DNA from: an uncultured Veillonellaceae bacterium
Lineage (GTDB): Bacteria; Bacillota; Negativicutes; Selenomonadales; Selenomonadaceae
Length of the DNA: 40,396 nucleotides
Reading direction: 5' to 3'
Assembly: GCA_900316275.1 (NCBI GenBank)
Contig: ONCF01000033.1
Coordinates: 1-40,396 of the forward strand
Numbering within the stretch: position 1 is the stretch's first letter; each line of letters begins with the position of its first letter. A program made the translations under genes and the position numbers. Below the pieces are notes generated by a model, which worked only from the letters and a program-made list of their open reading frames with translations, had not been told where the DNA came from and searched no databases. This document shows, one piece after another, positions 26,299 through 28,281 of this stretch.

Positions 26299-27966
26299 AT
26301 GTTAACAGATGTGGAAATTGCGCAGGCAGCCGAAATGCACCCCATCCGCGAGATTGCGGAGAAACTGAACCTGACGGAGGATGATATCGAGCTCTACGGC
26401 AAATACAAGGCGAAAATCGCGCTCGACGTCTGGCAGCGCGTCAAGGACCGCCCGAACGGCAAGCTCATTCTCGTGACGGCTATCAACCCGACGCCGGCGG
26501 GTGAGGGCAAAACGACGACAAGTGTCGGCCTCGCCGACGCATTCCACCGTCAGGGCAAGAAAACGGCCGTGGCGCTGCGTGAGCCCTCGCTCGGTCCCTG
26601 CTTCGGCCTGAAAGGCGGCGCAGCGGGCGGCGGCTACGCCCAGGTCGTGCCCATGGAGGACATCAACCTGCATTTCACGGGTGATTTCCACGCCATCACG
26701 ACGGCACACAACCTGCTGGCCGCGGTCATCGACAACCACATCCAGCAGGGCAACGCGCTGGATATCGACGTGCGCCGCATTACCTGGAAACGCGTGCTCG
26801 ACCTCAACGACCGCGCCCTGCGCCACGTCGTCATCGGTCTCGGCGGCAAGGCACACGGCGTGCCGCGTGAGACGGGTTTTGATATCACGGTGGCCTCGGA
26901 GATGATGGCTATCCTTTGCCTCGCGGACGGTCTTGAGGATATGAAGCGCCGCCTCGGCGAAATCATCGTGGCCTATACGCGTGACGGACGCGCCGTGCGT
27001 GCCAAGGAGCTCGGCGTTACGGGCGCGCTCACGCTGCTGTTTAAAGACGCCATCAAGCCGAACCTCGTGCAGACGCTCGAGGGTACGCCAGCCTTTATCC
27101 ACGGCGGTCCGTTCGCCAACATCGCGCACGGCTGCAACAGCATCATGGCGACGAAATTCGCGCTGAAATTCGCGGATTACGTTGTGACGGAGGCCGGCTT
27201 CGGTGCGGACCTCGGCGCGGAGAAATTCCTCGACATCAAATGCCGCTTTGCGGGCTTCCACCCCGACGCGGTTGTCATCGTCGCCACGGTGCGTGCGCTG
27301 AAAATGCACGGCGGCCTGGCGAAGACGGAGCTCACAAAGGTCGACATGGCGGCGCTGGAAAAGGGCCTCGCCAATCTCGAGAAACACATCGAGAACATTC
27401 AGGCCTTCGGCCTGCCCGCGGTCGTGGCCATCAACGCGTTCCCGACGGATACGCCGGAGGAGCTGGCCTTCGTCGAAAAGAAGTGCCAGGAACACGGCGT
27501 CGAGGTCGCGCTCTCCGAGGTCTGGGCCAAGGGCGGCGCGGGCGGTCTCGCGCTCGCGGAGAAAGTGGAGGCGGCGACTAAGAAGCCGAACAACTTCCAC
27601 GTGCTCTACGACGTAGAGGATAGCATCCCCGAGAAAATTACTAAAGTCGCGCAGACGGTCTATGGTGCCGATGGCGTGGACTTCACGGATGCTGCGCAGA
27701 AGCAGCTGCAGGAAATCGAGGCCCTCGGTCTCGACAAGATGCCCGTCTGCATGGCCAAGACGCAGTACTCGCTCTCGGACGACGCGACGAAACTGGGGCG
27801 CCCCACGGGCTTCCGCATCACGGTTCGCGAGCTGCGCGTCTCCGCCGGCGCCGGCTTCATCGTCGCCCTCACCGGCAACATCCTCACCATGCCCGGTTTG
27901 CCTAAAAAGCCTGCGGCAGAAAATATGGATATCGACGCGAACGGCAAGATTACGGGCTTGTTCTAA
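26299..27966 (+). CDS. fhs: Formate-tetrahydrofolate ligase
   Basis: Fhs makes 10-formyl-THF from formate, THF and ATP. The 555-residue length is usual. The ATP loop is [17 protein letters not shown] near residue 60. Other signatures are [33 protein letters not shown] and [20 protein letters not shown]. The C-terminus has [24 protein letters not shown] 26299 is 6 bases behind GAGGAGAG. With folD upstream and a MetF-like protein downstream it forms the folate arm of one-carbon metabolism, feeding purine and methionine synthesis; acetogenesis cannot be inferred from these genes alone. A terminator closes the unit at 27980-28015. Confidence 0.97.
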
Positions 27967-27979
27967 AATCAAGGAATCG

Positions 27980-28015
27980 GCTACCAACCCTAAGCAGGCT
28001 GGTAGCTTTATTTTT
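27980..28015 (+). terminator. Terminator after fhs
   Basis: GCTACCA (27980-27986) pairs with TGGTAGC (28000-28006) around a 13-base loop, followed by TTTATTTTT. Confidence 0.85.
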
Positions 28016-28027
28016 GCCACTAACGTA

Positions 28028-28221
28028 GCGCAGGGAGGGCCGTGGCACGAGTGTAGCGTTTATTTTTGGCGTGAAGAAAGATTTTTTTGCCGACTAGCTT
28101 CCTGCAAAAGTTTCAACCGTTCAAGCGCAGCGCGTTTTGGAACTTTTACAGGTTTAATTCTCGGCAAAAAAATCTTTTAGCCAAAAATATCAGCGAAACG
28201 ACGCCACGGCCCTCCCTGCGC
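28028..28221. repeat. Long fold-back palindrome (about 194 bases), possible MITE-like element
   Basis: The outer arms GCGCAGGGAGGGCCGTGGC (28028-28046) and its exact reverse complement (28203-28221) are 19 bases each. Inside follow TATTTTTGGC (28061-28070) with GCCAAAAATA (28180-28189), and AAAGATTTTTTTGCCGA (28077-28093) with an exact complement (28161-28177). Nearer the centre CTGCAAAAGTTTCAA matches TTGGAACTTTTACAG with two mismatches. The arms align along their whole length with small bulges, so the transcript could form one giant hairpin. No open reading frame of its own and no clear target duplication are seen. It separates fhs from the metF-like gene. Confidence 0.85.
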
Positions 28222-28281
28222 GGTCGCCTGCCACGAATTGACTTGAATAATACTACTATTGACAGCATTAATATTGCACGC

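What the first reader, a model, noticed from the sequence alone, without database searches (positions are those of the whole stretch)
28028..28221. 194-base fold-back palindrome with perfect 19-base ends
Nearly the whole segment is one imperfect palindrome, with exact matches of 19, 10 and 17 bases in register along the arms and no gene inside. This exceeds what terminators need and resembles a fold-back or MITE-type mobile element, or a long-hairpin RNA. Small bulges differ between arms, as expected after drift from a perfect repeat.
Basis: partly seen in the sequence, partly recalled or inferred. Interest (0 to 1): 0.6.

Follow-up and report, generated by a model that had tools for sequence, protein, structure and literature searches.

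The report
Dispersed giant-hairpin repeat of gut bacteria
The 194-base palindrome is one copy of a previously unlisted family of long-hairpin DNA repeats scattered in dozens of copies between the genes of many gut bacteria; its two arms change together while a short tip sequence stays fixed, so it looks like a small mobile element recognised by its folded shape.

Summary
It is not unique. A covariance model built from 34 copies finds 22 full-length copies in the same genome and hits in 61 of 189 genomes of the family (11 of 30 genera). Weaker but multi-copy matches occur in Lachnospiraceae/Eubacteriales genomes (up to 29 copies) and one Bacteroidales bin. Every copy keeps a 20-base cap (CGTTCAAGCGNAGCGCGTTT) and characteristic internal bulges, while the arms differ in sequence but stay complementary. 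At five orthologous loci, 53 base pairs changed on both sides and only 5 on one side. Sister species show empty sites, including at fhs-metF, and some genera carry many near-identical copies, so the elements spread. Copies sit at gene 3' ends or between co-directional genes, never in divergent promoter gaps. When two are close, they point away from each other. No RAYT/Y1 transposase or reverse transcriptase exists in the host genus and no linked gene was found. I read it as a non-autonomous, structure-recognised mobile repeat, REP/ERIC/MITE-like in behaviour but fitting no family in the libraries searched. The mobilising enzyme, and whether RNA or DNA is the working form, remain unknown.

The parts
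28014..28027 (+). Left flanking motif TTGCCACTAACGTA; the consensus TTGCCACnAACGT recurs left of many own-genome copies
   Evidence: alignment of 21 own-genome copies
28028..28046 (+). Outer stem, 5' arm (19 bp perfect); copy-specific sequence that covaries with its partner
28048..28060 (+). Second segment (consensus CATAAGCGnAGCGTT), two 2-bp helices with internal loops
28061..28070 (+). Second stem, 5' arm (TATTTTTGGC)
28069..28076 (+). Conserved asymmetric bulge motif GCGTGAAG (consensus GCGTTAAG)
   Evidence: conserved across the 34 copies; opposite TTTTAGC
28077..28093 (+). Third stem, 5' arm (17 bp perfect, AAAGATTTTTTTGCCGA)
28093..28099 (+). Conserved internal-loop strand (ACTAGCT) opposite TTTAATT (28153-28159)
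28118..28137 (+). Cap: CGTTCAAGCGCAGCGCGTTT, the most conserved part, also found in Lachnospiraceae and Bacteroidales copies
28161..28177 (+). Third stem, 3' arm
28174..28182 (+). 3' side of the bulge motif (CTTTTAGCC)
28180..28189 (+). Second stem, 3' arm (GCCAAAAATA)
28203..28221 (+). Outer stem, 3' arm
28229..28238 (+). Right flanking motif TGCCACGAAT; the consensus TGCCTCGAAC recurs right of many copies
27979..28015 (+). Probable fhs intrinsic terminator (GGCTACCAACCC...GGCTGGTAGCTTTATTTTT) immediately left of the element
   Evidence: sequence; scored L+; a terminator-like hairpin also follows fhs in G003 (L057)

Best explanation
A copy of a non-autonomous, multi-copy mobile repeat whose identity lies in its fold rather than its ends. 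It is a ~195-nt hairpin with a fixed cap and fixed bulges and free-running but complementary arms. Shown: dispersal, conserved architecture, covariation, empty sites, gene-end location, and outward-facing pairs. Inferred: an unidentified trans-acting enzyme or host factor recognises the folded single strand (DNA or RNA) through the cap and bulge motifs and copies or moves the unit into intergenic sites near gene ends and terminators; it may be carried within larger lineage-specific units with their own terminal repeats. Arm-to-arm complementarity is then maintained after insertion, by selection on the fold and/or by hairpin-templated (quasipalindrome) correction, because changes almost always appear on both arms.
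For: 22 full-length copies in the own genome and 61 of 189 family genomes positive; 35 in one single-contig genome and 29 in a Clostridiales bin. Covariation: 49 of 61 pairs with double changes, 394 double-change cells against 119 in shuffles and at most 143 in slid controls. Orthologous copies between species: 53 pairs changed on both sides, 5 on one. No hairpin in the fhs-metF gap of G003 and G002; clean 9- and 20-bp gaps in G003 where the own genome holds ~430-475 bp hairpin pairs. Near-identical expanded units in G182/G184/G186/G006 with terminal repeats; those tested by pattern (G006, G182/G170) are absent from reversed-pattern controls. No divergent gap among 42 gene contexts. Pairs under 500 bp apart all in - + orientation.
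Against: No mobilising enzyme was identified; no recurrent neighbouring gene other than a generic ABC transporter cluster. Terminal repeats differ between genera and exact target duplications could not be fixed. Several copies are vertically inherited between species, so movement in the own lineage is slow. The 2:1 excess of G.U over A.C hints at an RNA function that a purely selfish DNA element would not need.
Confidence: 0.6

Rival explanations
1. A host-selected structured RNA (3'-UTR, operon-internal or trans-acting) whose long dsRNA stem, cap and bulges bind a protein or ribonuclease; dispersal is secondary.
For: G.U wobbles exceed A.C mismatches 94:45 in 87 deduplicated copies on the cap-sense strand; an invariant G.U in the cap and a near-invariant one by the bulge; two pairs lie inside operons or a riboswitch leader and so are probably transcribed.
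Against: No strand bias relative to flanking genes (++ 16, -- 15); G.U pairs are only a few per cent of pairs; no Rfam match; copies absent at orthologous loci.
Confidence: 0.22
2. A DDE-transposase MITE: each lineage's hairpin is simply cargo of a terminal-inverted-repeat unit moved in trans by a resident IS.
For: Terminal repeats GGGGCTGTAACGAAATA in G006, AAATTRCAGTTTGTRGG in G182/G170 and AAACTGGAAGTTA in G186; shortened copies keep ends but lose the hairpin tip.
Against: Different terminal repeats per genus but the same hairpin; no terminal inverted repeat recognised in the own genus; no long transposase-carrying copy seen among the paired ends found.
Confidence: 0.12
3. REP/REPIN mobilised by a RAYT (Y1 HUH transposase).
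For: Extragenic, palindromic, paired in inverted orientation, gene-3'-end location.
Against: No Y1_Tnp in G000-G003 and none listed for the expanded genomes G182 and G186; five to ten times longer than a REP.
Confidence: 0.02
4. A locus-specific terminator or regulatory hairpin of fhs-metF, or an assembly artefact.
For: It lies between a probable terminator and a promoter-like site.
Against: Same architecture at 21 other loci; absent at this locus in sister species; present in independent and single-contig assemblies.
Confidence: 0.02

Closest known systems
REP / REPIN (with RAYT)
   Same: Extragenic palindromic repeats, many copies, gene-end location, inverted pairs
   Different: ~195 nt instead of 20-40 nt; cap conserved rather than a GTAG/CGTC tag; no RAYT in the host genus or listed for the expanded genomes G182 and G186
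ERIC / Correia-type MITEs (from general knowledge)
   Same: 100-200 bp intergenic imperfect palindromes, non-autonomous, few to dozens of copies
   Different: In those families copies share arm sequence and ends; here ends and arms vary freely but covary, and the interior cap is the conserved part
Rfam structured RNAs
   Same: Conserved secondary structure with strong covariation
   Different: No Rfam 15 family matches, even at relaxed threshold, around the window copy or in seven non-Selenomonas-type loci
Group II introns / retrons
   Same: Structured mobile units; terminator-side insertion recalls group IIC introns
   Different: Single hairpin, no ribozyme; no reverse transcriptase domain in the host genus

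Membership tests
REP/REPIN-RAYT | Cognate Y1_Tnp (RAYT) gene in genomes that carry the repeats | tested here: not met
   PF01797 absent from G000-G003 and not among the positive rows for G182 or G186
REP/REPIN-RAYT | Short (20-40 bp) tagged palindrome | tested here: not met
   ~195-nt hairpin
MITE | Multiple dispersed non-coding copies with empty sites | tested here: met
MITE | Terminal inverted repeats shared by all copies | tested here: inconclusive
   Clear within G006, G182/G170 and G186 but different between them; not recognised in the own genus
MITE | Target-site duplication | tested here: inconclusive
   TA-like pattern in some G182/G170 units only
Retron / group II intron derivative | Reverse transcriptase in the genome | tested here: not met
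   RVT_1 absent from G000-G003
Known Rfam RNA | Match to a covariance model | tested here: not met
Structured RNA | Expressed transcript | not testable with these tools
   no expression data held

The most novel reading that the evidence does not exclude
A mobile-element class spanning at least two major Firmicutes lineages (and possibly Bacteroidales) whose recognition signal is a folded giant hairpin, namely a conserved cap and a set of bulges, with arm sequence free to change so long as both arms change together, moved by an undescribed trans-acting enzyme.
Probability: 0.35. Interest if true: 0.82.

Novelty: new variant of a known kind. Interest (0 to 1): 0.62.

Why it matters
If right, it is a widespread, unannotated family of intergenic repeats in gut bacteria with unusually strong structural covariation. 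It gives a direct test of whether arms of long bacterial palindromes evolve in concert by hairpin-templated repair or by selection on a fold, and its fixed cap is a handle for finding the protein that recognises it. It may also explain contig breaks (seen in G006, G167 and G184) and gene-end spacers in these genomes.

Tried and rejected
RAYT/Y1 transposase: absent from the host genus. Reverse transcriptase/retron/group II intron partner: absent from the host genus. Known RNA family: none. Plasmid or phage origin: no blastn match; the single viral-contig hit matches only the 20-base cap. Autonomous partner by shared terminal repeats: only short non-coding units found. Recurrent neighbouring gene: the largest cluster was ABC transporters, judged generic from one member's sequence. 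A first ORF-based context count was discarded because antisense ORFs dominate in this GC-rich DNA; replaced by codon-usage scoring. Terminator adjacency is above shuffled flanks (14/47 against 6%) but that is expected at gene ends, so it is only suggestive. Literature searches found no description of this family; only open-access papers were searchable.

Full report
Observation. The segment is as described: three exact arm blocks in register, a single hairpin with MFE -112.7 kcal/mol for 28000-28250, z = -9.1 against shuffles. It lies between fhs (stop at 27966) and a metF-like gene (start 28356), just after a probable fhs terminator and before a promoter-like site.

It is a repeat family. blastn with the element finds about 20 other places in the own genome. 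These copies align across the whole hairpin. A covariance model R1 from 34 copies of five genomes finds 22 full-length copies in the own genome (a further 14 listed rows are antisense echoes of the same palindromes). It finds hits in 61 of 189 genomes of the family, 11 of 30 genera. A single-contig genome, G170, holds 35. The exact cap pattern CGTYCAAGCGNAGCGCGTTT occurs in at least 119 stretches of GTDB contigs, among them Selenomonas, Mitsuokella and Centipeda but also Lachnospiraceae/Eubacteriales and a few Bacteroidales bins. R1 confirms most of those tested and most fold into long hairpins with the same cap (a few, such as L228 and L275, match the cap only). Such genomes are themselves multi-copy: 29, 16, 15 and 11 copies in four Clostridia-type genomes and 5 in the Bacteroidales bin. 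The Bacteroidales copy read here lies between miaA-like and valS-like genes, by my reading of the translations, so it is probably not a stray contig. Bin contamination cannot be wholly excluded.

Anatomy. From outside in: a copy-specific outer stem of about 15-20 bp; short helices around CATAAGCGnAGCGTT; an AT-rich stem; an asymmetric bulge GCGTTAAG opposite TTTTAGC; a ~17-bp stem; an internal loop ACTAGCTT opposite TTAATT; an inner stem; and the cap. In own-genome copies TTGCCACnAACGT stands left and TGCCTCGAAC right of the stem in many cases. Two copies carry a ~66-bp insert at the apex (L016, L019).

Covariation. Of 61 consensus pairs, 49 show double changes. There are 394 double-change cells against 119 in shuffles, and the covariation score is 0.516 against 0.07-0.15 in slid controls. 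One-sided changes are about ten times rarer than two-sided ones. In five loci where own-genome copies and sister-species copies are in orthologous flanks, 226 pairs are unchanged, 53 changed on both sides, 5 on one side (pairs displaced by the alignment are left out of this count). The arms therefore change together at fixed positions, while the unpaired bulges and cap stay put. Two causes fit: selection on the fold, or intrastrand template-directed correction of a quasipalindrome (established in other bacteria, from general knowledge; here inferred). Conserved asymmetric loops argue that selection plays a part.

Strand. In 87 deduplicated copies, G.U on the cap-sense strand outnumbers A.C 94 to 45, which a purely double-strand constraint does not predict. 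Among flanking-gene orientations there is no strand bias (++ 16, -- 15). RNA or DNA as the working form is unresolved.

Mobility. The fhs-metF gaps of G003 and G002 have no hairpin. In G003 two loci that carry ~430-475-bp hairpin pairs in the own genome are closed to 20 and 9 bp between alignment blocks. One lies between a Moco riboswitch terminator and the next gene, the other between two co-directional genes, molybdate-transport-like by my reading. G001 keeps reduced versions. In other genera the hairpin is carried in recently multiplied, near-identical units: ~300 bp with GGGGCTGTAACGAAATA ends in G006 (44 end matches, 0 in reversed control), 570-700 bp two-hairpin units with AAATTRCAGTTTGTRGG ends in G182 (36 matches, 0 in control), and ~725 bp with AAACTGGAAGTTA ends in G186. 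G006 also has shortened copies that lost the hairpin tip. The ends differ between genera; the hairpin does not.

Placement. Of 42 copies with both neighbours called by codon usage, 31 lie between co-directional and 11 between convergent genes, none in divergent gaps. Pairs under 500 bp apart are all arranged - + (15, not all independent since some are copies of one mobile unit; also five pairs in G170 and two in G208, read from the coordinates).

Mechanism. Y1_Tnp/RAYT and RVT_1 are missing from the whole own genus, and no linked gene or longer transposase-carrying copy was found. The simplest account is a non-autonomous element recognised by fold and cap, moved in trans by an unidentified factor, with arms kept complementary after insertion. 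Dispersal, architecture, covariation and empty sites are shown; recognition by fold, the enzyme, and RNA versus DNA are inference.

Known or new. It works like REP/ERIC/MITE-type intergenic repeats but fails the RAYT and size tests for REPs and lacks the constant ends of a classical MITE. No Rfam family matches and no paper found describes it, within an open-access library. I file it as a new variant of a known kind.

Noticed in passing
L392:4728-5331 (G000:C75): Moco/tungsten riboswitch (RF01055) followed by a terminator, then an outward-facing hairpin pair inserted before the downstream gene; a possible natural change of riboswitch output.
   Followed up: partly
L122 (G000:C93:13724-13986) and L123 (G000:C75:31064-31326): Two copies carry a near-identical ~66-bp insert with its own ACCTGT...ACAGGT inverted repeat at the hairpin apex.
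   Followed up: no
L050 (G001:C51) against L112/L114 (G000:C77): A hairpin pair in one species is reduced to a fused one-and-a-half hairpin in the other, as expected of palindrome-driven deletion.
   Followed up: partly
window:38554-38602: A short 24-bp near-perfect inverted repeat with 1-nt spacer (92%).
   Followed up: no
G186 RVT_1 hits: Six reverse-transcriptase genes with identical scores in one Selenomonas genome, probably a multiplied group II intron.
   Followed up: no
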